A stretch of DNA of 64,000 nucleotides from a virus (IMGVR_UViG_3300043570_001980:248001-312000), one strand, 5' to 3'. Numbered from the stretch's first letter, positions 4,177 through 62,240 are shown. The notes: generated from the letters alone by a model not told the origin. Numbers and translations: made by a program.

Positions 4177-4189
4177 TCATTGATTACCT
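4171..4189. promoter_or_regulatory. 19-bp palindrome at gene end, upstream of a promoter
   Basis: AGGTAATCA-T-TGATTACCT is a perfect 9+1+9 inverted repeat covering the stop codon of the gene ending at 4176 and ending 6 bp before the -35 box at 4196. There is no T-run, so an operator is as likely as a terminator. Confidence 0.5.
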
Positions 4190-4195
4190 AATATA

Positions 4196-4224
4196 TTGAC
4201 ACTGACAACAATTGGTGTTATACT
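4196..4224 (+). promoter_or_regulatory. Sigma-70 promoter for dexA-like gene
   Basis: TTGACA (4196-4201), exactly 17 bp, TATACT (4219-4224). The ATG at 4231 is only 6 nt beyond the -10, so transcription should begin at or next to the start codon. Confidence 0.75.
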
Positions 4225-4230
4225 ACTTTC

Positions 4231-4752: not shown

Positions 4753-5360
4753 TGCCCAGCACATTGATAGTTGCTTTTGCCCCTGGCGCCAGAGGATTTA
4801 CACTGGGCAAGTGGTTACTAAACAATAAGATTGCTTGTGCTTGCATGAACAGTGGCTCAGAGTTTAACGAAGTTAATCATACGTTTGTTCCGTGGTATAA
4901 TGATGTTTTATTTCATTTCAACAGTGAAACTCGTGACACGTATTTAAAAATTAATGAATTACTGCTTGATACTAATTTAGAATCTAGTGAGTTAATGGAA
5001 TTAATTGGCACCAGTAAACATATACCTTTTAAAACTCAAACAATACCAGCATTGGTGTTGACACACCATGCAACACCTCAAGGCCTAATAAAATTAAAAA
5101 AAGCACTAAATGGAACTGTAATTAGAATTACATTTTCAGATGAAGAGCAAGCATCACAAAGTATGCATAGAAAAATGAAACTAGATAATGATTATCTGGT
5201 TGCAATGCAACTGGATAATGTAACAACATTCTATGAATCAACATATCAATCAGAATATATTCCTTTCTTAGAAGATTTTGATTTTGCAATTAATGTTAAA
5301 CTAGATCAAGTTAACTTGTTTGATTTAAATTTTTTAAAAGACAACATATCACAACAATAA
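4752..5360 (+). CDS. Unknown protein with N-terminal PGxRG motif
   Basis: A 202-residue protein starting at an ATG that overlaps the previous stop (TAATG). The N-terminus (LIVAFAPGARGFTLGKWLL) has a beta strand followed by a Gly-rich turn and helix, which recalls the start of nucleotide- or PAPS-binding folds but is not a true Walker A. Similar N-termini occur in the genes at 27892 and 45155. The rest is rich in Asn, Leu and Thr without recognisable catalytic residues. A sulfotransferase-like role is only a weak possibility. Confidence 0.6.
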   Translation: MPSTLIVAFAPGARGFTLGKWLLNNKIACACMNSGSEFNEVNHTFVPWYNDVLFHFNSETRDTYLKINELLLDTNLESSELMELIGTSKHIPFKTQTIPALVLTHHATPQGLIKLKKALNGTVIRITFSDEEQASQSMHRKMKLDNDYLVAMQLDNVTTFYESTYQSEYIPFLEDFDFAINVKLDQVNLFDLNFLKDNISQQ

Positions 5361-5368
5361 CTATTAGT

Positions 5369-6067
5369 ATGAAAAAAGTTTTAGTATCAGGATGTAGTTA
5401 CACAGTTAGACAACTGTGGCCTGAACATCTATTTCAAGGATGTGCAGTCACAAACAGGGCCCGTGGCGGAGCAGGCAATGACTTTATAAGTTTTAGTATA
5501 TTTGATGATATAAGAACTAATGGTAAACCTGATTTTGTCTTTATTCTGTGGTCAGGAATTCGCCGTAGAGAAGCATATTTTCCAAAAGAAACCAGGGACC
5601 TGGTATTTAAAGATGCGTTAATTGGACCAACACAGGATAGTATTGCAGTTTTTTCTGGTGGGAATTTTTTTAAATATAAAGGCAATGTTAAACCTTCTTA
5701 CCACCCGGAAGTTGATGATTTTTTTAAATTACAATATTCAAGTAGTAATGAACAGTTTTTAGTAGAGCAATCGTCACAAAAAATTTTAGCCTGTCATTCA
5801 TTCTTGGAGTCGCAGAAAATTGACTATAGATTTAGTTTTATATACAATATCTTTAGCAACGATTTTGATTGGGCTCCTGCGCTAGGATCAGCTGTGTCTA
5901 AGTCAGATGGTTATTTGAACTTTTTAGACTGGAACAAGTACATTAATATTACACCGTTTGAGTACGGAATTAAAAATGATTTAATGTCCAGTGACAATAT
6001 GCACTTGACTCATCCTGGTATGAACTCTTGGGCAGATGATATTTCTGTTCACCTACCTAAATTTTAA
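5369..6067 (+). CDS. SGNH/GDSL-like hydrolase domain protein
   Basis: A 232-residue protein beginning KKVLVSGCSYT, the block I pattern of SGNH hydrolases with Ser in a GxS turn, followed by a conserved-type Gly/Asn segment (ARGGAGNDF, block II/III-like) and a C-terminal DNMHLTHPG that would supply the catalytic Asp and His. SGNH enzymes are esterases or acetyl transferases on lipids and sugars. In phages such genes often accompany glycan genes. No signal peptide. A second protein of this type is at 50973. Activity is inferred from motifs only. Confidence 0.6.
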   Translation: MKKVLVSGCSYTVRQLWPEHLFQGCAVTNRARGGAGNDFISFSIFDDIRTNGKPDFVFILWSGIRRREAYFPKETRDLVFKDALIGPTQDSIAVFSGGNFFKYKGNVKPSYHPEVDDFFKLQYSSSNEQFLVEQSSQKILACHSFLESQKIDYRFSFIYNIFSNDFDWAPALGSAVSKSDGYLNFLDWNKYINITPFEYGIKNDLMSSDNMHLTHPGMNSWADDISVHLPKF

Positions 6068-13680: not shown

Positions 13681-14280
13681 ATGAAAACATTTGCACAATA
13701 CTTGATTGAAAGTGCTCAAACCTTTGATTATCGTATTAAAATCATTGGTGATTTGCCAGGTGGTTTTATGAAAGCTTTTAACGAAAAGTTAAAAAAATTC
13801 GACCCAATCAAAATCTCTGAGCCAAAGAAAACCCCAATTTTATCCAAACCAGTTGGGTTCCCAGACCATGCCAATCAGTCTGTAAACATCATTGATGTTA
13901 GTTTCAAATACCCTGCTACTCCTCCACAGGTGATTCAGATTGCTGAACTACTGGGTCTTGATGCAAACAGCATTGTGATGGACCAACGTGACTGGGCTGA
14001 AGGTATGGACAAAGAGTTATTGGGCATTGAAAATCAAAAGGATCTGCTAACCACAGATTTGCCACCAACAGACGCCGAACAGAAAAAATTAAAAGCTGAT
14101 TATGCCGCTGAACCTAGCGAACATGAAGTTGTTAAAAATTCTGCCAAGGATGCCAACTGGACTGTGGCCGGAGGCAAGACTGCACCTGCACAGACAACAA
14201 ATCAATTGCCAATGGGAGTCAAAAGCCCAATGACAACAATTAAAAGACCACCCAAGCCTGCAACCGGCTTCATGAAATAA
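13681..14280 (+). CDS. Virion protein with capsid-targeting-like N-terminus
   Basis: A 199-residue protein beginning MKTFAQYLIES. This resembles the capsid-targeting sequence of T4 internal proteins (MKTYQEFIAE type), which the prohead protease gp21 cuts after (I/L)-x-E; here the cut would follow Glu10. The next part (FDYRIKIIGDLPGGFMKAF, then NIIDVSFKYPATPPQVIQIA) is a compact alpha/beta domain common to virion proteins of aquatic T4-like phages. The C-terminal third is Pro/Lys/Thr-rich and probably flexible. Its function in the head is unknown. Confidence 0.7.
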   Translation: MKTFAQYLIESAQTFDYRIKIIGDLPGGFMKAFNEKLKKFDPIKISEPKKTPILSKPVGFPDHANQSVNIIDVSFKYPATPPQVIQIAELLGLDANSIVMDQRDWAEGMDKELLGIENQKDLLTTDLPPTDAEQKKLKADYAAEPSEHEVVKNSAKDANWTVAGGKTAPAQTTNQLPMGVKSPMTTIKRPPKPATGFMK

Positions 14281-14290
14281 GGAAAACAAC

Positions 14291-16582
14291 ATGACATTTT
14301 TTTACGACTTAAACAAGAAGCTGAGTGACTTGGCTGATAAACAAACTCTAAATGAAGGCATGAGCCGTGCTGCCAAGGGCTATGAAAAATACGGCAAGGA
14401 AGGCATGGAAGCCTTGGCCAAGGCCGGACGTGAAGGCAAGGCATTGGATCCTGTTCGCAAAAAACACGACAAGTACGACGAAGGTATGATCGGAACTGGC
14501 ATTGGCGCAGGTCTTGGCGCACTGGCTCTTGGTCCACTAGGAGCAGTAGGCGGCGCAATTGCCGGCGACAAAATAGGTGATGCATTTGATGAAGACATGA
14601 GCAATGTAGTTAAAAAAATTGGCAGTGGTGTAAAGAAAGTTGGTCAGAAGGCCCTTGATACATTGGGCCATGGCAGTGACGAAGACATGATCCGTGACCT
14701 ACAACGCAAAGCAGGCTTGCCACAAACAGGCAAGAAGCCCACTGGTGCTAGACCTACCGGCCACCCAATGGACGAAGGCGACATGGAAGAAGGCAATGAA
14801 TTCAGCGGTGCATTACAAAACGCTAAAGCAACTGGACAAAAAGAATTTGAAGTTGACGGTAAAGAATATCCAGTCAAAGAAGCAGCCAAATGGCGCGATG
14901 CCAAGTACAAAGACAAACTGTACACACAAGAACCTCCTGACTATGAAAACGATGATTACAGCATGGATGACTACTACAATGGTCCAAAACCAGATGACTA
15001 TCCTGGCTCAAAGAATCTAAAAGGTGGTGGTGAATTTGATCACAACGATCCTTTACAAAAAGGACAAGGTATTGGCCGTAGCGGCATCAAGCACAACATA
15101 CTAGATCGTGGGCCAAGAAAAGGAATGCCATCAAGAGACCAAATCACCAGTCTCAAAGGCAGTATTAAGGATGCACACGGAACACATGCACGACCCAATC
15201 TACCCGAAGCTGATGCACCAATGACTGCTAAACAAAAGTCATTTGCCGCACTAGCCGAACCCAAAAACAAAATCACTTTTGCTGACAAGATTGCTGGCGC
15301 CAAGAAAGAAGTTGACGAAATGCTAGGTGACGTGGCTGCCGAAGCCATGAAGAAAGCACTAGGTGGCGGCATGGGCCGTAGTGCCGAAATGGAAGAAAAA
15401 GAAGATAACAGCCCATTCACAGCACACAAGCGTCCACGTGTAGAAAGACCCAAAGTTGGTAGTATTGAGCGTGGAGCATTGCATGACATCGAGCACACAG
15501 CAACTGGCCGCAAAGTAACACGCAGAGTTGATCCCAACACTGGCCACAGCGTGGGTACAGACGACACACCAGCCGCAGGAGACAAGCGCGGTAAAGGACG
15601 CCCAAAAGGCACAGGCAAAAGCATTGGAGCCAAAGGACCAAGCGGTACTTCTAAACTAATGACCAAAGAAGGTTCAGACTCAGGCCAAGCTCAAGAAATT
15701 TATAATGAACTTGCAGAACTACGTGCAATTGCTAAGAAAGCTCAGGGCGGAGGACAAATGCCACCAGGCTTTGCCAGTCGTCTTGAAAGCTCACTGTGGG
15801 CCGCAATGACAATGATTAAAAACAATCAGCCCGGTAATGCACAAGTTAGAGAAGAAGAATTGGACGAAAAAGCAACTAGCAAGAAGCAACAAAAGTTCAT
15901 GGGCATGGTTCATGCCGCACAAAAAGGCAAAAAGCCAGCATCAAAAGAAGTTGCTAAAACAGCCAAAAGCATGGGCAAGAAAGATGCAGAAGACTTTGCC
16001 AGCACCAAGCACAAAGGTTTGCCTGAAAAGAAAACCAAGAAAAAAGAAGTTGAAGAAACAACAGTGGCAGGTTCAGTTGCAACTGCACCCAGCACAGGCA
16101 AAGCCAACGGCATGTTTGGCAAAGGCGTGTACGAAGCAAAGTTAGCTGAAAGTTTCAATGCTAAAATGGCACAACTCAATGAAGGCATGAATATCAATGC
16201 TTCTACAGATTCCGAAGGACACAATAGCATTACTGTATCTGCCACAGATGAAGATGCAGGAAAACTAGCACAAATTTTAAAGTTGGCTGGCATGGGCGGT
16301 GGCAGTGACGGCTACTCAGAAGTTTGCTCATCCTGCGGTTCTAGAGAATGTGGTTGTAATCAAGTTGACGAAGAGTTGGCCAACAGCGCAGACAACACTG
16401 AGTATGCTGGAATTGACACAATGACCAAAACACTCAGTGGTGGATTAAACGGTCCTAAGACTACTGGACAAACAACAACTCCTGTGGTCAACCGTGATCC
16501 GGCTCGTGGATCAGTTGGTCCTGTGGCTGAAAGCCAAGAAGCCCGTTTGTGGGAATTATATCAACGTTATTCTACAAAATGA
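14291..16582 (+). CDS. Large Gly/Lys-rich virion protein, probable head-internal
   Basis: A 763-residue, highly charged, low-complexity protein. Residues 1-22 end in TLNE followed by Gly, a candidate prohead protease site. A short Gly/Ala glycine-zipper segment (IGAGLGALALGPLGAVGGAI) lies near residues 73-95. Several further (I/L)-x-E sites occur (KLAES, QLNEG). A Cys cluster, CSSCGSRECGC (near residue 680), could bind zinc. The C-terminus reads EARLWELYQRYSTK. The composition suits a prohead core or DNA-associated internal protein. It overlaps the next gene by ATGA. Confidence 0.7.
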   Translation: MTFFYDLNKKLSDLADKQTLNEGMSRAAKGYEKYGKEGMEALAKAGREGKALDPVRKKHDKYDEGMIGTGIGAGLGALALGPLGAVGGAIAGDKIGDAFDEDMSNVVKKIGSGVKKVGQKALDTLGHGSDEDMIRDLQRKAGLPQTGKKPTGARPTGHPMDEGDMEEGNEFSGALQNAKATGQKEFEVDGKEYPVKEAAKWRDAKYKDKLYTQEPPDYENDDYSMDDYYNGPKPDDYPGSKNLKGGGEFDHNDPLQKGQGIGRSGIKHNILDRGPRKGMPSRDQITSLKGSIKDAHGTHARPNLPEADAPMTAKQKSFAALAEPKNKITFADKIAGAKKEVDEMLGDVAAEAMKKALGGGMGRSAEMEEKEDNSPFTAHKRPRVERPKVGSIERGALHDIEHTATGRKVTRRVDPNTGHSVGTDDTPAAGDKRGKGRPKGTGKSIGAKGPSGTSKLMTKEGSDSGQAQEIYNELAELRAIAKKAQGGGQMPPGFASRLESSLWAAMTMIKNNQPGNAQVREEELDEKATSKKQQKFMGMVHAAQKGKKPASKEVAKTAKSMGKKDAEDFASTKHKGLPEKKTKKKEVEETTVAGSVATAPSTGKANGMFGKGVYEAKLAESFNAKMAQLNEGMNINASTDSEGHNSITVSATDEDAGKLAQILKLAGMGGGSDGYSEVCSSCGSRECGCNQVDEELANSADNTEYAGIDTMTKTLSGGLNGPKTTGQTTTPVVNRDPARGSVGPVAESQEARLWELYQRYSTK

Positions 16583-17640
16583 AAACATTAAAAGATTACC
16601 TAACTGAAGCCGAGGAGTGGTCCGCTACTCCTGCTGTGGGCGACACATTTGCCTTTGACTACGGAGATCAATGCCTGGTAGAAACTCACATTGTTGATGT
16701 GGTTGGAAACGATATTATTCTTCATGCTGATGCTCGTGCAATTGAACTGCTGGAATCTCACGGATTTACTTCTGAAGAAATTCGTCGTTATGGTGCAGTA
16801 GGAAATAGCCCAGGTATGGGATATAGCATTGGCGAAGACCAATCAGCTGGAGTACTGGCAGCAAAAGAAATAGACACAGATATCACTAATCCCATGCCAG
16901 GAGTACACGAAAGTTTGGACGATGAAACATCTCCGGCTGAACGTGCAATCTTACATCGTATTTTGATGCAACACTCGAGTTTGTTAGGTCGTCATGGACC
17001 ACAGGCAGTGATGGATGCTGTTAAAGATGTTGCCGAGTGGGTTGGGGATGTAGAAGAAATTGGATCCAGCGATGTTAGTGGTTGGGTACGAGACGTTATC
17101 CGCACACTAGATGATTCATCTGATCAAGTAAAAGAATCCGATATTGATGTGATTGACAGCGGAGAATACGACCAAGAAGGCGATATGGCCAAAGATGATC
17201 TTGAAACCATTGTTCGTGCCGCTCGTAGACTCACAGGCATGTTAGACGACAATGAAAACATGCCAGAATGGGTACAGTCAAAAATCAACAAAGCCGCAGA
17301 CTATGTTGACACAGCCGCAGATTATATTGAAAGCAATCAAGACGAGTCTGATGAAGTTGAAATGACCGAAGCTGAGTATCAAGGTCGTAACGTGCCGCTG
17401 AGCAAACCCATGCGTGGTGATGTTAAAAAGTTTAAAGTTTATGTCAAAGATCCCAGCACCGGTAACATTAAAAAAGTAAACTTTGGACATGGTGGCACAA
17501 GTGCTAAACGTGCTGGCCAAAAGACAATGAAGATCAAGAAATCTGACCCTGCACGTCGTAAGAGTTTTAGAGCAAGACACAACTGCGAAAACCCAGGGCC
17601 AAGAACTAAAGCACGTTATTGGTCTTGCCGAGCATGGTAA
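16579..17640 (+). CDS. Virion protein with capsid-targeting-like N-terminus and DUF5872-like C-terminus
   Basis: About 353 residues from the ATG at 16579, which overlaps the previous stop; an ATG at 16549 would add 10 residues and hide the typical MKTLKDYLTEAE start. That start resembles the T4 capsid-targeting sequence with a cut after Glu10. The middle contains two acidic helical parts, one with MPEWVQSKINKAADYVDTA, a motif frequent in virion proteins of aquatic phages. The C-terminus (KPMRGDVKKFKVYV... and SFRARHNCENPGPRTKARY) matches the basic, Cys-containing DUF5872-type domain common in phage proteins, possibly nucleic-acid binding. Confidence 0.7.
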   Translation: MKTLKDYLTEAEEWSATPAVGDTFAFDYGDQCLVETHIVDVVGNDIILHADARAIELLESHGFTSEEIRRYGAVGNSPGMGYSIGEDQSAGVLAAKEIDTDITNPMPGVHESLDDETSPAERAILHRILMQHSSLLGRHGPQAVMDAVKDVAEWVGDVEEIGSSDVSGWVRDVIRTLDDSSDQVKESDIDVIDSGEYDQEGDMAKDDLETIVRAARRLTGMLDDNENMPEWVQSKINKAADYVDTAADYIESNQDESDEVEMTEAEYQGRNVPLSKPMRGDVKKFKVYVKDPSTGNIKKVNFGHGGTSAKRAGQKTMKIKKSDPARRKSFRARHNCENPGPRTKARYWSCRAW

Positions 17641-38438: not shown

Positions 38439-39190
38439 TTTCTTTCAATGTCCTCTTCGATACAGTTCTCACCGTATTGAATTTCAATTAATTTTAACGG
38501 CTGGTTGGTTTCGTTACACAGCATGTGCCATTGGCCTTTGTCGATAAACACATATTCGTGCAGACCGTATGTGCCAACCAGATCGTGATCACTGCTGGAG
38601 TCTAGTGTATAAACTGCGGCTTCACCTTCAGCAACAAACCAAAACTCTGCACGTTGATCATGACGTTGCATGCTCAAACATGTCTTGGGCGTCACTGTTA
38701 GTTCTTTGAGTTTGGTGTTTGCGCCTACTTCGTGTAACACACGATAGTATCCCCAGGCACGTGAGGTCCGGGGCTTCTTCCAATCCTCGAGAATCCATGA
38801 ACTAGAATTCTTCTTGTCCTCTCCACCAACACCAAACACAAACTCTACGTCATCGAACACCATTTCTGGAATGTTATTCTGGGTACGATCGCCGCCGTTG
38901 GCAAACACAATAGTATCAGTTGGGTAACGTTGTTTGATTAACTCAATTGCATTGCAACTGGAGTTGTCATCATCGTTGTAAACCACAACTTCGTCAACAA
39001 TGCTCAACGCACTGATTAGTTCAAAACGTTCACTCATAGGCATAAAAGGCCTACCTTTTTTACGAGTAAGCCATTCATCAGAGTTGAGTCCGACAATCAA
39101 TATGTCGCCTAGTTGTTTTGCTGATTTAAAGTAAGCAAGGTGCCCGGAGTGTATGGGATCAAACCCACCTGTAACAAGTACGATTTTCAT
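38435..39190 (-). CDS. Nucleotidyltransferase-cupin fusion for nucleotide-sugar synthesis
   Basis: A 251-residue two-domain protein. Residues 1-140 form a HIGH-superfamily cytidylyltransferase-like domain (VTGGFDPIHSGHLAYF, GLNSDEW, and KKGRPFMPMSERFEL in place of the ISSTxxR-type motif), like the nucleotidyl-transferring half of HldE. Residues about 165-250 form a type II mannose-6-phosphate isomerase cupin (MQRHDQRAEFWFVAEGEA, then EYVFIDKGQWHML). Together they suggest an enzyme making or trimming NDP-mannose or heptose-like sugars. This domain pairing is unusual. It is the first gene of the minus-strand run, with a late promoter. Confidence 0.75.
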   Translation of the reverse strand: MKIVLVTGGFDPIHSGHLAYFKSAKQLGDILIVGLNSDEWLTRKKGRPFMPMSERFELISALSIVDEVVVYNDDDNSSCNAIELIKQRYPTDTIVFANGGDRTQNNIPEMVFDDVEFVFGVGGEDKKNSSSWILEDWKKPRTSRAWGYYRVLHEVGANTKLKELTVTPKTCLSMQRHDQRAEFWFVAEGEAAVYTLDSSSDHDLVGTYGLHEYVFIDKGQWHMLCNETNQPLKLIEIQYGENCIEEDIERK

Positions 39191-51710: not shown

Positions 51711-52696
51711 TAGACATAATCAATTACCTGCCTGCTAAAAGAAAAACTAGTCCACAGGGCTGGACTAGTTTTAATGCTGTGTGTTGCACCCATAATGGTA
51801 ACTCACAAGACAAACGTGGCCGAGGCGGCATCAAAGTCACCGACCAAGGTTGGAGTTACCACTGCTTCAATTGCGGCTACACAGCTAGCTTTGTACTAGG
51901 GCGTACTTTAAGTTTTAAAGCCAAACGATTGCTAGGTTGGATGGGTGTGCCGGACAACGAGATTGAAATGCTCAATCTTGAAAGTCTAAGACATCGCAAC
52001 ATACACGGAATTTTAGAAGATAGACAACGAGTATCCAACACACTGAGCGCAATTGAGTTTGGTGAGTCCGATGACTTTCCGCCTTACGCAGAAGTAGTTA
52101 CTCCAGAATTTCCAACATACTGGGACTACATCCGCCATCGCGGCGTGCCAGAAGATTTTCCTGTAATGACTTCTATCAAGACTGATGGAGTTCATTGGAC
52201 CAGACCGTATGTGTTGATACCGTTTACATACGACAACAAAGTAATAGGTTGGTGTGCTAGATTCTTAGATAACAAGATTCCCAAGTATATCAATCATAGC
52301 CAACCGGGCTATGTATTTGGCACAGACCTACAACATAATGACTGGCAGTATGTGATTGTTACAGAAGGTATATTTGATGCACTAAGCATTAGCGGCCTTG
52401 CACTAATGCACAACACCATCAGCGACAGTCAAGCTAGACTGATACGTAGCTTGGGCAAGGAAGTAGTTGTGGTTCCGGACCAAGACACAGCAGGTGTAGA
52501 ACTGATTGACCGTGCTGTAGAATTAGGATATAGTGTTAGTATACCTACATGGCCAGACGACTGTAAAGACGTTAATGATGCAGTGATAAAGTTGGGCAAG
52601 TTAGGAGCCTTGCTAACTATTATGCAAGCAAAAGAGACCAGTAAGATAAAAATTGAAATAAGGAAAAAGCAACTTGTTAAAAGATTACGGACTTGA
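51707..52696 (+). CDS. 61: DNA primase (gp61-like)
   Basis: A 329-residue primase starting at a GTG that overlaps the previous stop. The N-terminal zinc site is CCTHNG...CFNCGY; the TOPRIM domain includes VIVTEGIFDALSI (catalytic Glu) and EVVVVPDQDTAGVEL (the DxD). It makes RNA primers for lagging-strand synthesis together with the gp41 helicase, whose gene follows with a 23-nt overlap. T4 gp61 is 342 aa. Confidence 0.88.
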   Translation: MIDIINYLPAKRKTSPQGWTSFNAVCCTHNGNSQDKRGRGGIKVTDQGWSYHCFNCGYTASFVLGRTLSFKAKRLLGWMGVPDNEIEMLNLESLRHRNIHGILEDRQRVSNTLSAIEFGESDDFPPYAEVVTPEFPTYWDYIRHRGVPEDFPVMTSIKTDGVHWTRPYVLIPFTYDNKVIGWCARFLDNKIPKYINHSQPGYVFGTDLQHNDWQYVIVTEGIFDALSISGLALMHNTISDSQARLIRSLGKEVVVVPDQDTAGVELIDRAVELGYSVSIPTWPDDCKDVNDAVIKLGKLGALLTIMQAKETSKIKIEIRKKQLVKRLRT

Positions 52697-54116
52697 TGTC
52701 CAACGATTATTCCTAGAGATGATGTTAGAAGACGCATCGAGTTATGTGCGTGTTCAAAATATTTATAACCCAGCAAACTTTGACAAGAGTTTGAGACCTG
52801 CGGCTGAGTTCATTAAAGAACACTCAGACAAGCACAAGACCATGCCAGACAGGCTGCAGATTTCAGCCACCACAGGCGTTAAACTTGCACCAGTGCCGGA
52901 CTTGAACGAAGGTCATTACGATTGGTTCATGGGCGAGTTTGAATTGTTTACTAAACGTCAGGAACTTGAACGTGCTATTCTTAAATCAGCAGACTTGTTA
53001 GAAAAAGGCGAGTTTGAACCAGTTGAGAAACTGATCAAAGATGCTGTGCAGATTAGTTTAACCAAAGACATGGGCACAGACTACTTTGCTGATCCTGCGG
53101 CTCGCATCAACAAATACTTTAATTCAGGTGGACAAGTGTCAACAGGATGGCCACAACTGGACAAGTTGTTGTATGGTGGATTCAGTCGCGGTGAACTAAA
53201 CATCTTTGCAGGTGGATCAGGATCTGGCAAATCACTTGTGATGATGAACATTGCATTAAACTGGTTGCAACAAGGTCTCAGTGGAGTATACATTACACTA
53301 GAACTTTCGGAAGAGCTTACTAGTTTAAGAACAGATGCTATGTTAACCAGCATGAGTACCAAAGACATCCGCAAAGACATTGACACTACTACAATGAAGG
53401 TTCGCCTGGTCAGTAAAAAATCTGGTCAATATCGAGTCAAGGCATTGCCGGCACAGAGCAACATTAATGATATCCGCAGTTATGTCAAAGAAGTGCAGAT
53501 ACAAACAGGTATCAAAATTGACTTTATGATGATTGACTATCTGGACTTGTTGATGCCTGTTAGTGCAAAGGTCAGTCCAAACGATTTGTTTGTAAAAGAC
53601 AAGTATGTGAGTGAAGAACTACGAAACTTGGCCAAAGAGCTAGGTATGTTAATGGTAACAGCGTCACAGTTGAATCGTAGTGCTGTGGAAGAAATTGAGT
53701 TTGATCACTCGCACATTTCAGGTGGTATTTCCAAGATTAATACTGCTGACAACGTGTTTGGTATCTTTACGTCACGTGCTATGAAAGAGCGTGGCAAGTA
53801 TCAGATCCAGTGTATGAAAAGTCGTAGTTCTACAGGCGTAGGACAAAAGATTGATTTGGAATACAACATTGAAACCATGCGTATTACTGACCCAGGAGTG
53901 TCTGACAACGATAATTTCCGTGGCGGTGCAAAACCTAGTATCATGGACTCATTCAAAACAAAAAGTACAGTAACTGACAATACGGCTGAAACCACATCAT
54001 CAACTAAATGGGAAAGGCCTACAGGAACACCAGCATGGGAACAACCACCTAAGGTATCAGCTGATGTGCAAAGTGCCAAATTAAAACAACTGTTGGGACA
54101 AATTAAACAGTCATGA
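52674..54116 (+). CDS. 41: Replicative DNA helicase (gp41-like)
   Basis: A 480-residue DnaB-type helicase beginning at a TTG with an AAGGA ribosome binding site. Walker A is NIFAGGSGSGKSLVM (about residues 175-190), preceded by STGWPQLDKLLYGGFSRGEL; Walker B is FMMIDYLDLLMPV, and VTASQLNRSA is the motif H3 region. T4 gp41 is 475 aa. It forms a hexamer on the lagging strand and works with gp61. The acidic/Ser-rich C-terminal 60 residues are likely flexible. ATGA overlap with the radical SAM gene that follows. Confidence 0.92.
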   Translation: MLKDYGLDVQRLFLEMMLEDASSYVRVQNIYNPANFDKSLRPAAEFIKEHSDKHKTMPDRLQISATTGVKLAPVPDLNEGHYDWFMGEFELFTKRQELERAILKSADLLEKGEFEPVEKLIKDAVQISLTKDMGTDYFADPAARINKYFNSGGQVSTGWPQLDKLLYGGFSRGELNIFAGGSGSGKSLVMMNIALNWLQQGLSGVYITLELSEELTSLRTDAMLTSMSTKDIRKDIDTTTMKVRLVSKKSGQYRVKALPAQSNINDIRSYVKEVQIQTGIKIDFMMIDYLDLLMPVSAKVSPNDLFVKDKYVSEELRNLAKELGMLMVTASQLNRSAVEEIEFDHSHISGGISKINTADNVFGIFTSRAMKERGKYQIQCMKSRSSTGVGQKIDLEYNIETMRITDPGVSDNDNFRGGAKPSIMDSFKTKSTVTDNTAETTSSTKWERPTGTPAWEQPPKVSADVQSAKLKQLLGQIKQS

Positions 54117-55249
54117 AATACTGCCCGGATGTTTGGAAAAGTTTATACATAGAGAAAAAATCTAAAAATACAATCGGTGTGGGATTTTGTTGTCAAAATC
54201 AGGTTGTTTACATTCCGGCCAATATAGAAGAGCTTCGCTCAACTATAGAAAAAAAACAACACGATTTTAAAAACAATTCAGAACCGACGCAATGTAACAA
54301 TTGCTGGAGAATTGAAAAAACTGGATCACCCAGTCGCAGGCATGCTTCGATTGATTGGTTTGATAATAATCAGATAGATAATAATACCGACAACAAACTA
54401 ATATCTCTAGATTGGAATAGTGAAAATGTTTGCAATCTTGCATGTATTTCCTGTGGCCCAAAGTATAGCAGTCGCTGGCGTCAAGAAATTTTAAATTATA
54501 GTTTTAACAACCTGTCGTCAGAAAAATATATTAACAATCTTAAAGATAATAAATTTTGGAAATCGTTAGATTTGCGCCATCTTAAAAGATTATATTTTAA
54601 CGGAGGCGAACCGTTGATGAATTCTGATCACAAAGAAATATTGTCTCATCTAAGAGAGATAGGACAGTTATCAGAACTTGAGCTTTCTTATAATACCAAC
54701 GGAACAATTATTCCCAACGACGAAGTATTAGATTATTGGAAAAATGTTGGACTACTGAGAATTTCTATTAGCATAGATGCAACTACTCAAGCTTTTGATT
54801 TTATACGTTGGCCCGCCAAATGGGAGCAAATTTTAACTTTTATTGAATTTATAAATCAGCAATCATTTAATATCATTATTGATATAACTTGCACAGTTGG
54901 CATCCACAATATTTTAGAAGTTGATAAATTAATTGCATGGCAAAAAACTAATTTATCAACCAATGCGCAAGGAGATCCAGTAGGTCTTAATTTTCAAATG
55001 GCTGGCCCAATCAGCCACGGTGGAACTGTACTAAAATTAAATACTATCAGTAAAAATCTTGCCACATGCATATTACCGCAATTAATTGAAATAAAAAAAT
55101 ACGGCATCTGGTCAGCCATTGAGAATAGCTTATTAAATGCCAACGGTAATGACTTGTGGGTTGAGTACTTAGATGAACTGTCTGCTCGACGACATATTAA
55201 CTGGAAAGATCAGTTACCAACATTGGCAGAATCATTGAGAATTTCTTAA
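54113..55249 (+). CDS. Twitch-type radical SAM protein
   Basis: A 378-residue protein. The SAM cluster motif is NVCNLACISCGPK (C-x3-C-x2-C, about residues 104-115), followed by LYFNGGEPLM (GGE motif) and LSYNTNGT. The N-terminus has GFCCQN and CNNCWRIEKTG, extra Cys for a second cluster, as in SPASM/twitch-type enzymes that modify peptides. The same layout occurs in the convergent gene 55254-56315. Substrate unknown; the partner peptide is not evident. It overlaps the helicase gene by ATGA. Confidence 0.82.
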   Translation: MKYCPDVWKSLYIEKKSKNTIGVGFCCQNQVVYIPANIEELRSTIEKKQHDFKNNSEPTQCNNCWRIEKTGSPSRRHASIDWFDNNQIDNNTDNKLISLDWNSENVCNLACISCGPKYSSRWRQEILNYSFNNLSSEKYINNLKDNKFWKSLDLRHLKRLYFNGGEPLMNSDHKEILSHLREIGQLSELELSYNTNGTIIPNDEVLDYWKNVGLLRISISIDATTQAFDFIRWPAKWEQILTFIEFINQQSFNIIIDITCTVGIHNILEVDKLIAWQKTNLSTNAQGDPVGLNFQMAGPISHGGTVLKLNTISKNLATCILPQLIEIKKYGIWSAIENSLLNANGNDLWVEYLDELSARRHINWKDQLPTLAESLRIS

Positions 55250-55253
55250 ATTA

Positions 55254-56315
55254 TCAAAACAAATTAACAAGTTCTGGCAGATAGTCTTTGATTAAGATAT
55301 TCTTTGAAGAATCTTGTAATTTGATATTTTCCAACATTAAATTAAAATTTTGTTGGTCTTGGTCTGTGTGTACTGCCCCCACAAACATGTTATAGTCCAT
55401 TGGTCTGAGCTTTTCTTTAAGCACTTGTTTGATGTCTGCGGACAAGGCTCTCGGTTGTAACCATTTTGGATTATAAATTGGATTTACAGAATATACTATA
55501 TTATTTTGGTCAAACCATTTTTTTGTTTGGTTATGGTACAGCACATTCAAGTTACTTAATGTGTAATTTGAACTAACATTTTTTGAAATTTCTTTAAAGA
55601 ATTGAAGATTTTGGTTCAGCTGGTCCCATTTCAATGGAAATCTGAGATACTCGAACACAGGTCCGACTCCGTCGATACTGAGAGAAAAATTAAGATTTTT
55701 AAATTTTGACAGTATTCTTTTTTGTTTATCTGACAGTACAACACTTCCGTTTGTTATCATACTTACAAATAGTTGATCGTTACCTGTATCAATTAAATGT
55801 TCTAATAATTCGAAGTTTTTCTTTTCGTACAGCGGTTCACCACCTAGCAAACTTAGCATTTTTAATTCTTTAAAATCTACATCTTGTTTGATTTTTTCTA
55901 TGTCAATGAATTTGTATTTTTTAATTGGTATAGTTGGGTCTGTCTGACGATCGAGTTGTGCCCAACTACTACTGGCTCCGGCGCCACAGCTTACACAGGT
56001 AGCATTACAGGTGTAACTGGTTGTTAATTTTAGTATGCGGGTAGGAGTAATACCGTGTGTGGCATCTTGTATGATTTTTGTTAAGTCTTTATCCCAATAA
56101 AAATCTAAAGATTTGTTTTTAACCTGACGATCACTTTTTAAACCTTGATCTTCCAATGACCAGCATTTTTGACAAGCAGATGATCTTTGACCAGATAATA
56201 AATCTTTTTTAATTTCTTCAAGATTGTGATTCTTGGGCAATAAACAACAGGGTGTTTTGTTATTGTTATAATCAATTTCTTTACTAAACCACGGTAATAC
56301 GCAAAATGTATCCAT
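55254..56315 (-). CDS. Twitch-type radical SAM protein, convergent copy
   Basis: A 353-residue minus-strand protein related in layout to its neighbour: N-terminal TPCCLLPKN and ACQKCWSLEDQG (extra Cys), SAM cluster SYTCNATCVSCGAG (C-x3-C-x2-C), LLGGEPLYEKK and MITNGSVVLS. The family resembles radical SAM proteins of cyanophages and pelagiphages annotated without function. It ends 5 nt from the stop of the gene at 54113. A late-type -10 (TAAATA) lies 4 nt before its ATG. Confidence 0.82.
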   Translation of the reverse strand: MDTFCVLPWFSKEIDYNNNKTPCCLLPKNHNLEEIKKDLLSGQRSSACQKCWSLEDQGLKSDRQVKNKSLDFYWDKDLTKIIQDATHGITPTRILKLTTSYTCNATCVSCGAGASSSWAQLDRQTDPTIPIKKYKFIDIEKIKQDVDFKELKMLSLLGGEPLYEKKNFELLEHLIDTGNDQLFVSMITNGSVVLSDKQKRILSKFKNLNFSLSIDGVGPVFEYLRFPLKWDQLNQNLQFFKEISKNVSSNYTLSNLNVLYHNQTKKWFDQNNIVYSVNPIYNPKWLQPRALSADIKQVLKEKLRPMDYNMFVGAVHTDQDQQNFNLMLENIKLQDSSKNILIKDYLPELVNLF

Positions 56316-56378: not shown

Positions 56379-56639
56379 ATGCAAAAGAAAACACGTAGCA
56401 TTCTTGAAGAATTAGATGGTTTATACAATGATCGACATAAAGATCAGGATAAACGCTATATCATTGAAAGCCGAGCTGACCATGTTATAGCATCTGCTAT
56501 AAGATTGATTGAACAAATCGAGTCATCATTTACGCCTGAGCAGTCAGAAAATCTAATTCGTAAACTGTTCAATGCTATGCGGGACAAAGACCCAAGTAAA
56601 TTTACTAGAACAGTGAGAAGAACAAATGCAGATTCATGA
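56379..56639 (+). CDS. Small helical conserved phage protein
   Basis: An 86-residue helical, charged protein (SILEELDGLYNDRHKDQDKR, VIASAIRLIEQIESSF) with a basic C-terminus. The pattern is familiar from small conserved genes of marine T4-like phages. It overlaps the next gene by 14 nt. Function not known. Confidence 0.65.
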   Translation: MQKKTRSILEELDGLYNDRHKDQDKRYIIESRADHVIASAIRLIEQIESSFTPEQSENLIRKLFNAMRDKDPSKFTRTVRRTNADS

Positions 56640-57624
56640 GCTAACAAAACTTACCGAAGCAGGTGTTATGGATTATTTAAAAGCGGCTGTGAGCCGTGAT
56701 CCTGCATTGGCAAACATGAGCTACGATCAAAAAATCAAAGCCATGCAAAACGACGAGTCAATGAAAAAGTTAGCACAAGTTGCCTCTCAAAATTGGATTA
56801 ACAAAACTGTAAATCTGCAACGTGCTAATATGGGACAACCCATTAGTGATCAGGAATATACTGCTAACCTTACTGATTTTGTTAACAAAGTTATGCTAGG
56901 TGGTCAAATGAATCAACTTGACCCAACCAGCAAAGCCCGTGTAGATCAAGCCATTCAGTATGTTGCATCTAAGAAAAATACTCCCAAGGAGTTACCTGCG
57001 GCATTTCAGTCGTTGGCAGTTAGAACTAGTGCCGCACGTATGCAACAAAGACAACCCAAAGGTCAACGCGGCGGAAATAATCCTGCAAAGCCACCAGCAA
57101 CAACACCAACAACAGCTACTACTCCAACAACAGCTACTACTCCAGCAACGCCACCGGCTACTACTCCAGCAACACCAACAACAGCTACTACTCCGGCAAC
57201 GCCTGCTCAACCAACACCTGCACAAATTAGACAACAAAAGCAAGCGTCCGCTGCCACCACTGCACAACAACAAATGGCGCCTAATCCAACTACTACACCA
57301 GCACAAACACCTGCACAAATTAGACAACAAAAGCAAACCGCTGCCGCCGGTACCGCACAGCAACAAATGGCAAGCGGCACAACTCCAACGGCAACTCCTG
57401 CGTCTGCCCCGGCAGCACCAGTAAAACCAAATTCAAATGAGTTTGCAGAAAAGATTACCAAGATGTTTGATGAGTTTGCAGATGCTGATGGATCCACTGG
57501 CTCTCCAGCTGTGAGATCAGCCATACGAAATATGTGGATGCGCACAGGAGGTACTGACTTAAAAGAGAGTAGAGTCAAGAAAAAGAAAAAAACAACAGTG
57601 GTTGAATCTAAAGGTAAAAAATGA
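56626..57624 (+). CDS. Probable internal/prohead protein with Pro-Thr-Ala repeats
   Basis: A 332-residue protein starting MQIHELTKLTEAGVMDYL; LTE followed by Ala is a candidate prohead protease site after Glu11. Residues 1-140 are helical; 150-250 are low-complexity Pro/Thr/Ala/Gln with repeats (ATTPTTATTPTT and a duplicated TPAQIRQQKQ...AQQQMA block). The C-terminal part (EFAEKITKMFDEFADADGS) is helical again and ends in a Lys-rich tail (KKKKKTTVVESKGKK). Charge and repeats suit a DNA-binding or scaffold-like head protein. ATGA overlap with the next gene. Confidence 0.6.
   Translation: MQIHELTKLTEAGVMDYLKAAVSRDPALANMSYDQKIKAMQNDESMKKLAQVASQNWINKTVNLQRANMGQPISDQEYTANLTDFVNKVMLGGQMNQLDPTSKARVDQAIQYVASKKNTPKELPAAFQSLAVRTSAARMQQRQPKGQRGGNNPAKPPATTPTTATTPTTATTPATPPATTPATPTTATTPATPAQPTPAQIRQQKQASAATTAQQQMAPNPTTTPAQTPAQIRQQKQTAAAGTAQQQMASGTTPTATPASAPAAPVKPNSNEFAEKITKMFDEFADADGSTGSPAVRSAIRNMWMRTGGTDLKESRVKKKKKTTVVESKGKK
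57091..57210 (+). repeat. Thr-Pro-coding tandem repeat region
   Basis: Short imperfect repeats of the type ACAACAGCTACTACTCCA encode the Thr/Pro/Ala stretch in the protein at 56626. Such repeats vary in copy number by slippage. Confidence 0.6.
57214..57372 (+). repeat. Duplicated 66-bp unit
   Basis: Two copies, 57214-57279 and 57307-57372 (93-bp spacing), each begin ACACCTGCACAAATTAGACA and encode TPAQIRQQKQ...AQQQMA. Confidence 0.65.
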
Positions 57625-59573
57625 TCAACAGGTTGCTAGAAGGCGGCAACGTGTTTAAAGATGCACAGGGTCAGCCATTAACACAGCGTATTAGTCAAGG
57701 TGATGTTCCAGCAACCATTAAATGGTTAGAAGGAGTCACAGGTCTTGATCTAAGCGACGACAAAGATCCATCCACTGGATATCCGCGACGCTGGTTGGGC
57801 AGTACAGGAAAAAAACCCACATCCGGAGACCTGGACCTTGCAGTTGATAGCAACGAAATCAGTAAACCACAGTTAAAAGCAAATCTAGACCAGTTCATTA
57901 TTAAAATGAAACAAGACCCAAAAGAATGGGTAAAATTAAGCGGCGAAGCAGTACATTTTAAAACTCCTATTGCAGGAGACCCAACAAAAGGATTTGTGCA
58001 AACGGACTTTATGTTAATGCCCAATCTCAATTGGGGTACTTTTTGGTTAGGTGGAGGCGCCGGTTCAGAATACAAAGGCATGTATAGAAATGTCTTGATG
58101 AGTAGCGTGGCCAAAGCATTGGGACTCAAGGCCAGTGCCAAAGGAATCATTAGTCGTGCCACAGAAAATGTGTTAACTCTGGATCCTGATCAAGCGGCAA
58201 AAAGTTTACTTGGCCCCACAGCTACTGCCAAAGATCTAGCCACAGTTGAAAATATCTATGCCGCATTGTCTAAAGATCCTGACCGTGAAGCCAAGTTACA
58301 GGACTTTAGAGAATACCTAGCTAGGGACGGCCTTCAAGAGCCAGGGCAAGTGCAAGAAAGTGATGTAAGTTTTATTGCAAAACTTCGTGACAGAATTGTT
58401 AATCAAGGCATGCAACCCTTGGTTGAAGCCGACACAACAATGCCTGCCAAGAAAGATCCAAGAATTCCGCACCCCGAAGATGCTTTCTTTATGGGCAATA
58501 GCCAAGCCGCATCTCGAGCCATACAAGGCCTAGAAGCTGCCGCTAGCAATGACAAAAATATCACAATCAAATGGGACGGTAAACCTGCATTGGTCTTTGG
58601 GCGCTTGCCCAATGGACGTCTGTCTATAATGGACAAGTACATGTTCGACGCTGGCTATGCCGCACAAAGCCCTGAAGATTGGATCAAATACGATCAACAA
58701 AAGAAAAGTGGCAATTTAAGAACAGATTTATATCCTAAGTTAAAAGCTATTTGGCCAGGTCTAGATGCGGCTACTAAAGGTTCAGGATTTTACTGGGGCG
58801 ATTTGTTGTGGGCAGGCCAGCTAACACCCACCAGCGGTGAATATCAGTTCAGACCCAATTTGGTTCAATATTCTATTCCAGCCAACAGCCCCGAAGGGCA
58901 AATTATCAATGGCAAGTCGGGAGGCATTGTTGTGCATCAACACTTTAACAAGCTGGGTGATAAAACAGCACAAGTATGGGACGGACAAGGATTAGAGAAT
59001 GTACCGGGTGGAGTGGCTATATTAACACCGACCCTGGGTACAAAATTCAAACTGTCTAAGCCCAATCTTTCGGCGGCCAAAAAAGCAGTATCCGCATACG
59101 GCACAGCAGTAGACGAATTGTTGAACTCGCTTCCTGGCTCTGTCAGACAGAGAATTCAAACCTACTTCAATCAGCGCATCATTGGCGGCACAACGCTGAG
59201 CCTACACAACTGGCTCAAAGTCAATACCAGCGGCAAACAATATGCTGAGTTAGTGGCTGGCAATCCGGATGTTCAAGGACAATACAATGCTAAAACTGAC
59301 AACCTGCCAGGCAAATTGTTCACTTTAGATCGAGCAGGTAAAATTGTCCCTAGTCCTGCATACACAGGCCTACAACAAATTTGGGATGGCATTTATAATG
59401 CCAAGCTTGGCATGGCACAACAGCTTGAACAACAAGTCAATGGATTAAAACAAACCACAGCTGGTAAAGCCGAAGGCGAAGGGTTTGTAGTCAACACCCC
59501 GCACGGACTGGTCAAGCTGGTAAACCGTGGAGTTTTTTCAGCTGGGAACGCCCAACAAAACAATCCCAGATAA
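57621..59573 (+). CDS. Nucleotidyltransferase-ligase fusion, probable virion-carried repair enzyme
   Basis: A 650-residue two-domain protein. Residues 8-180 form a Pol beta-type nucleotidyltransferase: LGSTGKKPTSGDLDLAV (Gly60-Ser61, Asp70, Asp72) and VQTDFMLMP (Asp129) give the hG-S...DxD...D signature. Residues 290-635 form an ATP/GTP-type ligase domain: ITIKWDGKPALVFG (Lys317 in KxDG), a motif III-like FYWGDLLWAG (390-399), EGFVV (620-624) and VKLVN (Lys632). The start MINRLLEGGN has LLE followed by Gly, a prohead protease-like site; LVE followed by Ala at 267-270 lies between the two domains. A gap-filling polymerase plus ligase in one virion protein would be unusual. Substrates are unknown. 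Confidence 0.7.
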   Translation: MINRLLEGGNVFKDAQGQPLTQRISQGDVPATIKWLEGVTGLDLSDDKDPSTGYPRRWLGSTGKKPTSGDLDLAVDSNEISKPQLKANLDQFIIKMKQDPKEWVKLSGEAVHFKTPIAGDPTKGFVQTDFMLMPNLNWGTFWLGGGAGSEYKGMYRNVLMSSVAKALGLKASAKGIISRATENVLTLDPDQAAKSLLGPTATAKDLATVENIYAALSKDPDREAKLQDFREYLARDGLQEPGQVQESDVSFIAKLRDRIVNQGMQPLVEADTTMPAKKDPRIPHPEDAFFMGNSQAASRAIQGLEAAASNDKNITIKWDGKPALVFGRLPNGRLSIMDKYMFDAGYAAQSPEDWIKYDQQKKSGNLRTDLYPKLKAIWPGLDAATKGSGFYWGDLLWAGQLTPTSGEYQFRPNLVQYSIPANSPEGQIINGKSGGIVVHQHFNKLGDKTAQVWDGQGLENVPGGVAILTPTLGTKFKLSKPNLSAAKKAVSAYGTAVDELLNSLPGSVRQRIQTYFNQRIIGGTTLSLHNWLKVNTSGKQYAELVAGNPDVQGQYNAKTDNLPGKLFTLDRAGKIVPSPAYTGLQQIWDGIYNAKLGMAQQLEQQVNGLKQTTAGKAEGEGFVVNTPHGLVKLVNRGVFSAGNAQQNNPR

Positions 59574-60881: not shown

Positions 60882-61405
60882 AAAAACAAACAATAAAAAA
60901 CGCACTGGTTCGTCTTGAGCAACTGGTTCAGCCTGAACTGGATTTGTTGAAAAACAATATGATTATTCCATTAGACGGAAGCAATCAATACCAGGTGTTT
61001 GACAAATACTTTATCTTTAAAGAAAACAACGTATTTGTAGTTAAAATAAGAGATACTGTTTGTGGGGAGTTTTCAACCATGCGCTATGCTATCAGTTGGT
61101 GCATCTCAGACAAATACAATCAGTATAACTTATCTAATACTATAAAAATGCTAGATGAAAAAATCACACATTTATCTAGGGACGTCAGTGTACGTGAATT
61201 ACTGGCTCGAAGTTTTAAAGATCAAAATCATAGAGAAATTGCATATCTTAAAGTTCAAAACAAAAAGATGCACATAGTATCTATAAAAGAACAGCTAGAC
61301 AAATGTGTAAATCTGGCTAAATACTGGCAAATTAGAGGATTCAATAATGAAACTGCAAGAACTGGACGCACGTCAAATTTCAAAACAGACCGAAAAGGTA
61401 CTTGA
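60878..61405 (+). CDS. Conserved phage protein of unknown function
   Basis: A 175-residue protein with a strongly patterned start (KKQTIKNALVRLEQLVQPEL), a mixed alpha/beta middle (YFIFKENNVFVVKIRDTVC) and a basic end. Similar genes precede the scaffold-like gene in marine T4-like phages as I recall. It overlaps the next gene by 59 nt in another frame, and the next ATG lies within it. Confidence 0.65.
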   Translation: MKKQTIKNALVRLEQLVQPELDLLKNNMIIPLDGSNQYQVFDKYFIFKENNVFVVKIRDTVCGEFSTMRYAISWCISDKYNQYNLSNTIKMLDEKITHLSRDVSVRELLARSFKDQNHREIAYLKVQNKKMHIVSIKEQLDKCVNLAKYWQIRGFNNETARTGRTSNFKTDRKGT

Positions 61406-62240
61406 AAACCGTTTAGGTTATTCTGTACACTTTGACCGGTTGAACACTGGCCAAACACGCCAGATGCTCGCACAGGTTAGAAACCTAATCAAGGAGCATC
61501 AAAGCACTCCTGCTTTTCACAAGAGTGAAAGACAGCCCGCTTACCTAAAGCTGATCATGCTTGAGCAAGGACTTGCTAGTAAACTTTCAGAGCAAATTCC
61601 TCCAGCACCTGGCACAGCCGGGGCTGTCCCTGGTCAGCCAGCAGTTAATCCTGCACAGATGGGTATGCAAATTGCCAAGCAGAAAAAAGCTCTACAAGAT
61701 CAACTGAAGGCAGCGCAGGAGCAAGTTCGTAATATTCAAAAGCAAATAAGCCAACCTAATCTAGGCATGGCAGAGACAACAAGAATTGCAAAACGTCGAT
61801 TAAGAGAAAGCGAAATTCAACAAGCTCAGGTTGTTTTAGCCGCACAGGACATGGTTGACCAGATTCAGAAAATGCTTGAACAGATCTCTGAAATGCAGTT
61901 CAAAGACTTACCAGCATTAACTGACAGCATTCGTAATGACATGGGTGTTGATCAAGCCACCAAGTTCCAAGCTGATGCCACAGCCGCATTGAGCACATTA
62001 CTAGGTGCTGTGCAAGCAGGCAAAACTCAACTCGAAGGCGCCCAAGCCGTATTAACTGGACAAGCACCTGTTGTTCCTGGCGAAGAAGATTTAGCCGCTG
62101 ACCCAGCTGCCGATCTTGATGCTAGTGCTGACCTAGATGGCGATGCCGCTGATCTTGACGCAGATGCCGCAGACTTAGATGTCGACGCTGCCGAAGATGA
62201 TTTACCTCCAGCGTCGTCACTGGGTCGTGATCGTCGATAA
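61347..62240 (+). CDS. Probable prohead/scaffold-like protein, acidic
   Basis: A 297-residue protein. Residues 1-75 form a conserved-type domain (MKLQELDARQISKQTEKVLE, HKSERQPAYLKLIMLEQGL) found in virion proteins of aquatic T4-like phages. Residues 100-240 are a long coiled coil (KQKKALQDQLKAAQEQVRNI). The C-terminal 50 residues are an Ala/Asp run (DLDASADLDGDAADLDADAA). Coiled coil plus acidic tail is typical of scaffold or prohead core proteins. This assignment is inferred. Confidence 0.6.
   Translation: MKLQELDARQISKQTEKVLENRLGYSVHFDRLNTGQTRQMLAQVRNLIKEHQSTPAFHKSERQPAYLKLIMLEQGLASKLSEQIPPAPGTAGAVPGQPAVNPAQMGMQIAKQKKALQDQLKAAQEQVRNIQKQISQPNLGMAETTRIAKRRLRESEIQQAQVVLAAQDMVDQIQKMLEQISEMQFKDLPALTDSIRNDMGVDQATKFQADATAALSTLLGAVQAGKTQLEGAQAVLTGQAPVVPGEEDLAADPAADLDASADLDGDAADLDADAADLDVDAAEDDLPPASSLGRDRR

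What the first reader, a model, noticed from the sequence alone, without database searches (positions are those of the whole stretch)
57621..59573. Pol beta-type nucleotidyltransferase fused to a ligase domain, with protease-like sites at the start and between the domains
Seen: a GS...DLD...D nucleotidyltransferase signature (Ser61, Asp70, Asp72, Asp129) and a nucleic acid ligase signature (KWDG at 317-320, EGFVV at 620, VKLVN at 630-634) in one protein. The start MINRLLEGG and an internal LVE-Ala (267-270) fit (I/L)-x-E prohead protease cuts. Known: T4 gp21 cuts at such sites. Inferred: a head-packaged polymerase plus ligase, possibly released as two enzymes, to repair DNA or RNA after injection, an idea parallel to bacterial LigD.
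Basis: partly seen in the sequence, partly recalled or inferred. Interest (0 to 1): 0.8.

Follow-up and report, generated by a model that had tools for sequence, protein, structure and literature searches.

The report
Capsid-targeted phage polymerase-ligase fusion protein
A giant freshwater virus of bacteria carries one gene for a small family-X-like repair polymerase joined to a ligase-like enzyme, with tags that should pack it into the virus head and cut it apart there, so the infecting particle may bring its own nucleic-acid repair kit into the cell.

Summary
The 650-aa ORF at 57621-59573 is real and conserved, with intact catalytic motifs in both halves. The N-half has no family hit, but its confident model matches only family X DNA polymerases among the PDB hits shown, and its profile aligns to bacterial PolX, not to phage RlaP. 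The C-half is Pfam DUF6267 (unknown function). It has ligase motifs I, III, IV and V, invariant in about 190 relatives, and links through jumbo-phage relatives to RNA_ligase.

The protease-site idea fits better than expected. The genome encodes a gp21-type prohead protease. [ILVF]xE stands directly before GG in 148 of 159 relatives, and a few relatives start at that GG. Where the halves are separate genes (38 loci), the DUF6267 gene mostly begins with its own T4-like capsid-targeting sequence, and fused proteins keep such a site at the junction. A homologue of the N-half is annotated as an MS-detected virion protein in phage PA5oct.

Most likely: a head-packaged, injected gap-filling polymerase plus ligase, cut in two. 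Fold, motifs and tags are shown; packaging here, cleavage, activity and substrate are inferred. Nearest precedents: PgVPolX, T4 injected head proteins, RlaP with RNA ligase. A new variant of known kinds; LigD is only an analogy.

The parts
57621..59573 (+). Gene for the 650-aa PolX-like / DUF6267 fusion protein
   Evidence: ORF; 28 relatives in viral contigs by direct search; 128 loci with the two domains fused, counting repeats and the window itself
57621..57641 (+). Residues 1-7 MINRLLE: likely capsid-targeting propeptide, cut expected after Glu7 (E|GG)
   Evidence: [ILVF]xE before GG in 148/159 relatives with prefixes of variable length; several homologues start directly at the GG; S77 protease in genome
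57642..58160 (+). Residues 8-180: PolX-like palm and thumb
   Evidence: AF2 pLDDT 92.1; PDB Foldseek best E 5.7e-6, all 50 rows shown are PolX, pol lambda or pol mu; profile alignment to PolX
57798..57848 (+). Residues 60-76: GSTGKKPTSGDLDLAVD, nucleotide-binding/metal motif with D70 and D72
   Evidence: G60, G69, D70, D72 invariant where covered, of 131 aligned relatives
58005..58007 (+). D129, third catalytic Asp (VQTDFMLMP, aligned with IQVDLRVVP of PolX)
58161..58415 (+). Residues 181-265: helical C-terminal extension of the N-half
   Evidence: AF2 secondary structure; no family
58419..58430 (+). Residues 267-270 LVEA: internal prohead-protease-like site between the halves
   Evidence: strict site in 50/67 fused linkers; same place as the N-terminal targeting sequence of separate DUF6267 proteins
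58467..59549 (+). Residues 283-643: DUF6267 (PF19782), ligase-like domain
   Evidence: Pfam E 9.3e-24; AF2 pLDDT 92.3; BFVD Foldseek E 5.7e-5 to PA5oct 446-aa protein and 1.9e-3 to Atu_ph07 RNA ligase
58569..58580 (+). KWDG 317-320, ligase motif I (nucleotidyl-lysine K317)
   Evidence: K, D, G invariant where covered, of 193 relatives
58797..58805 (+). GDL 393-395, motif III (Asp where ligases usually have Glu)
   Evidence: G and D invariant where covered
59070..59252 (+). Residues about 484-544: helical insertion between motifs III and IV
   Evidence: AF2 secondary structure
59478..59492 (+). EGFVV 620-624, motif IV
   Evidence: E, G invariant where covered
59511..59525 (+). VKLVN 631-635, motif V (K632)
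   Evidence: K invariant where covered; matches PA5oct ...EGYVIRTPSMQVKIVD
56626..57624 (+). Upstream neighbour, 332 aa, starts MQIHELTKLTEA (targeting-sequence-like) and overlaps the fusion gene's start codon
56379..56639 (+). 86-aa protein of phrog_11854 (virion structural protein)
   Evidence: E 7.6e-14
61347..62240 (+). 297-aa protein matching phrog_14154 (virion structural protein), downstream
   Evidence: E 1.7e-15
52674..54116 (+). DnaB-like helicase; the module lies close downstream of the replicative helicase also in Phosso, Atu_ph07, S-WAM1 and Melnitz

Best explanation
The gene makes a two-enzyme precursor: a minimal family-X-like polymerase (palm and thumb) followed by a DUF6267 domain, a divergent covalent nucleotidyltransferase of the ligase superfamily. 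The first seven residues act as a T4-style capsid-targeting propeptide, cut by the phage's gp21-type protease after Glu7. A second site of the same kind (LVE|A at 267-270), inherited from the targeting sequence of a once separate ligase gene, lets the protease separate the two enzymes in the prohead. The particle then delivers them with the genome, where they fill short gaps and seal nicks or breaks in nucleic acid: the incoming phage genome, or RNA cut by host defence. Shown here: gene, folds (N-half strongly, C-half moderately), conserved catalytic residues, conserved cleavage-type sites, protease in the genome, virion annotation of a homologue. Inferred: packaging in this phage, the cuts, injection, activities, substrate. 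DNA repair is preferred because the N-half matches PolX and not RlaP; RNA remains possible for the ligase half.
For: PolX: AF2 model pLDDT 92; 113 PDB hits at E<=0.001, best 5.7e-6, probability 1.00, all 50 rows shown are PolX/pol lambda/pol mu. hhalign to eight bacterial and archaeal PolX: score 36.8 against a null maximum of 20.1 over 100 column shuffles, with GS..GDxD, the third Asp and the thumb aligned; to RlaP: 12.3, no signal. Ligase: motifs invariant where covered; profile link to PA5oct EST35_0228, score 40.7 against null maximum 22.4; that protein matches the Atu_ph07/Phosso neighbour at 91.6%, and the Atu_ph07 one hits RNA_ligase at E 0.002, below the Pfam cut-off; Foldseek BFVD links. 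Pairing: fused in 128 loci, adjacent NT-then-DUF6267 in 38. Packaging: protease; sites; EST35_0231 annotated ESI-MS/MS; the cyanophage nucleotidyltransferase partner has a targeting sequence in 77/77 loci and is reported from virions (PMC3037559, PMC9602691, PMC9146016, PMC10665884).
Against: No activity or proteomics for this protein. The DUF6267 model has no significant PDB match, although ligases and a guanylyltransferase are frequent among the top weak hits; TM-scores for the PolX match are moderate (0.42-0.48), and hhalign gives it only 38% probability. Pfam finds no PolX or ligase family. The ligase half lacks a C-terminal OB domain and has Asp in motif III. The PolX half lacks fingers and 8-kDa domains. 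In PA5oct the ligase-like protein is not among those marked as MS-detected. 17 of 67 linkers lack the strict site. In cyanophages DUF6267 sits with an unrelated HIGH-type nucleotidyltransferase instead of PolX, which weakens a purely gap-filling reading. The genome already has a gp30-type DNA ligase.
Confidence: 0.5

Rival explanations
1. RNA repair kit: the Pol-beta domain adds nucleotides to RNA ends and the DUF6267 ligase seals tRNA or other RNA cut by host anticodon nucleases, like RlaP with Rnl1/Rnl2, but delivered in the head.
For: The nearest ligase family reached is RNA_ligase (E 0.002). RNA-ligase-associated Pol-beta enzymes (RlaP) are common in jumbo phages (PMC7824862). No OB domain, which DNA ligases have.
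Against: The N-half resembles PolX, not RlaP. Atu_ph07 carries an RlaP in addition to the N-half homologue, so the two are not the same gene.
Confidence: 0.27
2. Injected effector: the nucleotidyltransferase modifies a host protein, tRNA or small molecule, and the ligase-like half is a nucleotidyl carrier or capping-type enzyme rather than a strand joiner.
For: DUF6267 also pairs with HIGH-type cytidylyl/NMN adenylyltransferase-like proteins carrying targeting sequences in cyanophages; Pol-beta domains of packaged polyvalent proteins have been predicted to modify proteins (PMC5512222).
Against: Fold and motifs are PolX-like rather than of the effector families; all four ligase motifs tested are invariant.
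Confidence: 0.12
3. A structural or scaffold role in the head, with catalytic residues kept only by descent.
For: The locus contains virion-structural families and the neighbour also has a targeting-like start.
Against: Catalytic residues are invariant where covered across deep families, which a purely structural role would not demand.
Confidence: 0.06
4. The (I/L)xE sites are coincidental and the protein is an ordinary early repair enzyme made in the cell.
For: Gene lies close to replication genes (DnaB-like helicase upstream); no proteomics for this phage.
Against: Sites conserved against variable flanks, and mature-start homologues; PA5oct homologue annotated as MS-detected in virions.
Confidence: 0.12

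Closest known systems
PgVPolX, the PolX-NAD+ DNA ligase fusion of Phaeocystis globosa virus (PMC5537341)
   Same: Same order, polymerase then ligase, in one viral protein; shown there to fill gaps and seal nicks for base excision repair
   Different: That ligase is a full NAD+-dependent DNA ligase and the polymerase has the 8-kDa domain; here DUF6267 without OB, minimal palm/thumb, phage, with capsid-targeting and cleavage sites
T4 internal head proteins and Alt with capsid-targeting sequences cut by gp21 (PMC9026906, PMC9958956)
   Same: Short N-terminal peptide ending L/I-x-E, gp21-type protease, T4-type head
   Different: Those proteins are not polymerase or ligase; an internal junction site between two enzymes is added here
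RlaP (PF10127) with Rnl1/Rnl2 RNA ligases of phages (PMC7824862)
   Same: Pol-beta-superfamily nucleotidyltransferase teamed with a ligase
   Different: Profile does not match RlaP, the PF10127 search finds none in this genome, head targeting and fusion
DUF6267 (PF19782) / phrog_455 of cyanophages
   Same: C-half is a member
   Different: Cyanophage members stand beside, or are fused to, a cytidylyltransferase-like domain; no PolX partner seen in the records checked
Bacterial LigD (own knowledge)
   Same: Polymerase plus ligase in one protein
   Different: LigD polymerase is primase-like, its ligase has an OB domain, it works with Ku; none of these found here

Membership tests
Family X DNA polymerase | GS...GDxD and third Asp on a Pol-beta palm, followed by thumb | tested here: met
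Family X DNA polymerase | Fingers (HhH) and 8-kDa domain | tested here: not met
   No room before the palm in the model; PMC5537341 names ASFV PolX as the known exception lacking the 8-kDa domain and fingers
Family X DNA polymerase | Curated profile match (PF14791 over own genome; all Pfam over members) | tested here: not met
   resemblance only at profile-profile and fold level
Family X DNA polymerase | Template-directed gap filling | not testable with these tools
   needs purified protein
RlaP | PF10127 profile | tested here: not met
DUF6267 | PF19782 above gathering score | tested here: met
   84.9 bits, cut-off 27
Ligase / covalent nucleotidyltransferase superfamily | Motifs I KxDG, III, IV EGxV, V in order on a nucleotidyltransferase core | tested here: met
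   motif III has Asp for Glu
Ligase / covalent nucleotidyltransferase superfamily | Significant fold match to solved ligases | tested here: inconclusive
   no E<=0.001 though ligases are frequent in the top rows; E 1.9e-3 to a predicted RNA ligase
ATP-dependent DNA ligase | OB domain with motif VI | tested here: not met
   Only one helix after motif V
LigD NHEJ system | Ku gene | tested here: not met
   (record may be a fragment)
T4-type capsid-targeted protein | Short N-terminal peptide ending [IL]xE | tested here: met
T4-type capsid-targeted protein | gp21-type protease and gp23-type capsid in the genome | tested here: met
T4-type capsid-targeted protein | Presence and processing in virions | tested here: inconclusive
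   PA5oct N-half homologue annotated ESI-MS/MS; nothing for this phage

The most novel reading that the evidence does not exclude
Tailed phages carry a head-packaged polymerase plus ligase repair kit, made as one precursor, targeted by one leader, cut in two by the prohead protease through an internal relic leader, and injected to mend the incoming genome (or cut RNA) before any phage gene is expressed; DUF6267 is the ligase core, which swaps nucleotidyltransferase partners (PolX-like or HIGH-type) between phage groups.
Probability: 0.38. Interest if true: 0.82.

Novelty: new variant of a known kind. Interest (0 to 1): 0.63.

Why it matters
It gives a testable function to DUF6267, a common unknown in cyanophages and freshwater jumbo phages, and proposes a PolX-like polymerase packaged in a phage head. 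If true, such phages bring DNA- or RNA-repair enzymes with the genome, acting before host nucleases or defence win; and a prohead protease would serve to split a fused enzyme, which is unusual. Because split and fused forms both occur, the targeting, cutting and partner exchange can be tested directly.

Tried and rejected
RlaP identity of the N-half: rejected by profile comparison. LigD/NHEJ membership: no Ku, no OB domain. Direct sequence hits to solved structures: none meaningful; weak hits to BACH1, symplekin and a small protein named NF7 judged chance. hhalign of DUF6267 to T4 Rnl1, Rnl2 and gp30: nothing, but known relatives gp30 and Rnl2 also fail to find each other this way, so it is uninformative. 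Enrichment of N-terminal [IL]xE[AGS] over the fetched stretches of this genome: 7 of 122 ORFs (5.7%) against 3.9% expected, no clear excess; the case rests on conservation within the family. The viral scans with the Phosso and PA5oct N-half proteins found no relative.

Full report
What is there. The ORF 57621-59573 (+, 650 aa) is as described. The window lies at 248001-312000 of a 341,990-base virus record with a gp23-type major capsid protein and a gp21-type prohead protease, so this is a T4-type jumbo phage. The gene follows a 332-aa ORF whose stop overlaps its start, lies about 3.5 kb downstream of a DnaB-like helicase, and has virion-structural families on both sides. The stated residues are correct except that VKLVN is at 631-635.

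N-half. No Pfam family fits, singly or over 59 relatives. The AF2 model has pLDDT 92. Foldseek against the PDB gives 113 hits at E<=0.001; the 50 rows shown are all PolX, pol lambda or pol mu. The TM-scores, 0.42-0.48, are moderate. Independently, the profile aligns with eight bacterial and archaeal PolX sequences at score 36.8; 100 column shuffles reach at most 20.1; the alignment pairs GS..SGDxD with GS..GDxD, VQTDFMLMP with IQVDLRVVP and the thumb region. The hhalign probability is only 38%, so the shuffles and the fold carry the weight. The known phage RNA-repair nucleotidyltransferase RlaP gives no signal (12.3), and Atu_ph07 has both an RlaP and the N-half homologue. The fingers and 8-kDa domains of PolX are missing.

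C-half. It is DUF6267 (PF19782, E 9.3e-24), abundant in marine cyanophages and of unknown function. Motifs I (KWDG), III (GDL), IV (EGFVV) and V (VKLVN) are in order, with key residues invariant where covered across 193 aligned sequences including cyanophage ones. The model has pLDDT 92. PDB Foldseek finds nothing at E<=0.001, but tRNA ligase, archaeal RNA ligase, DNA ligases and a guanylyltransferase are frequent among the top weak hits. In predicted viral structures it matches PA5oct's 446-aa protein (the length of EST35_0228; E 5.7e-5) and an Atu_ph07 RNA ligase (E 1.9e-3). hhalign repeats the first link (40.7, null maximum 22.4) and connects PA5oct to the Atu_ph07/Phosso neighbour at 91.6%; the Atu_ph07 neighbour hits RNA_ligase at E 0.002, below the curated cut-off. 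In Atu_ph07 and Phosso this ligase-like gene directly precedes the N-half homologue. I take DUF6267 as ligase-superfamily at about 0.85 and as an active strand-joining ligase at about 0.6.

Fusion and sites. Over the viral loci, 128 have the two domains fused and 38 have them as separate nearby genes, N-half first (loci partly overlap, so these are not independent counts). Separate DUF6267 genes of this group mostly begin like T4 targeting sequences: MYFEFVEYLMEA, MILDFINMLTEA, MKLDFINSILVEA. In fused proteins an [IL]xE[AGS] site remains at the junction in 50 of 67 distinct linkers, 1.3% expected. At the other end, prefixes of different length and sequence end in [ILVF]xE just before the conserved GG in 148 of 159, while L018, Phosso and Atu_ph07 simply start MGG and PA5oct MSGNAF. 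That is what a removable leader predicts. A general N-terminal excess over the fetched part of the genome was not clear (7 of 122).

Virion evidence. In PA5oct the N-half homologue EST35_0231 is annotated as a structural protein by ESI-MS/MS; the ligase-like EST35_0228 is not. I found no paper with the underlying list. In cyanophages DUF6267 adjoins or is fused to a cytidylyltransferase/NMNAT-like protein; 77 of 77 of these next genes start like MRFRQFIIEA, and homologues are reported from virions (PMC3037559, PMC9602691, PMC9146016, PMC10665884; the last warns that contamination cannot be excluded).

Mechanism. Best reading: precursor, targeting, two cuts, packaging, injection, gap filling and sealing. 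Only anatomy and conservation are shown. DNA is preferred because of PolX similarity and the PgVPolX precedent (PMC5537341); RNA is the main rival because the ligase chain leads to RNA_ligase and RNA repair is common in jumbo phages (PMC7824862). The HIGH-type partner in cyanophages keeps a small-molecule or effector reading open. A separate gp30-type ligase suggests a special role, for instance acting at entry.

Verdict. New variant of a known kind; interest 0.63.

Noticed in passing
window 13681-14280 and 16549-17640: Two further ORFs with classic T4-like targeting starts, MKTFAQYLIES|A and MKTLKDYLTEA; no Pfam family for either, the second hits phrog_7595 of unknown function. Candidates for other packaged, injected proteins.
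   Followed up: partly
window 54113-55249 (+) and 55254-56315 (-): Two convergent ORFs between helicase and module; the first is a radical SAM protein, the second has similar cysteine-rich motifs by eye; similar-looking ORFs stand in the same place in L024, L181, L182.
   Followed up: no
L033:5185-6237 and loci L186-L265: The cytidylyltransferase-like gene after DUF6267 in cyanophages starts with a T4-type targeting sequence in 77/77 loci, which fits its repeated detection in virions.
   Followed up: yes
L268 (S-PM2) 3995-5774: DUF6267 and the cytidylyltransferase appear as two annotated ORFs with the DUF6267 domain split between them; a 591-aa fused entry from S-PM2 appears in BFVD.
   Followed up: partly
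L177:1-1953: DUF6267 is fused to a different N-terminal domain with ligase-like motifs by eye (KVDG, EGLVLN, VKVT); profile comparison gave no support.
   Followed up: partly
L185:3778-6357: A DUF6267 gene followed by a 480-aa HIGH-type cytidylyltransferase-like protein (MKADQIFEDA start) instead of a PolX-like partner.
   Followed up: partly
window 38876-39175 (-): HIGH-type nucleotidyltransferase (CTP_transf_like E 2.2e-17), one of three matches in the genome.
   Followed up: no
window 57046-57450: The upstream neighbour has a long Pro/Thr/Ala/Gln-rich repetitive stretch.
   Followed up: no
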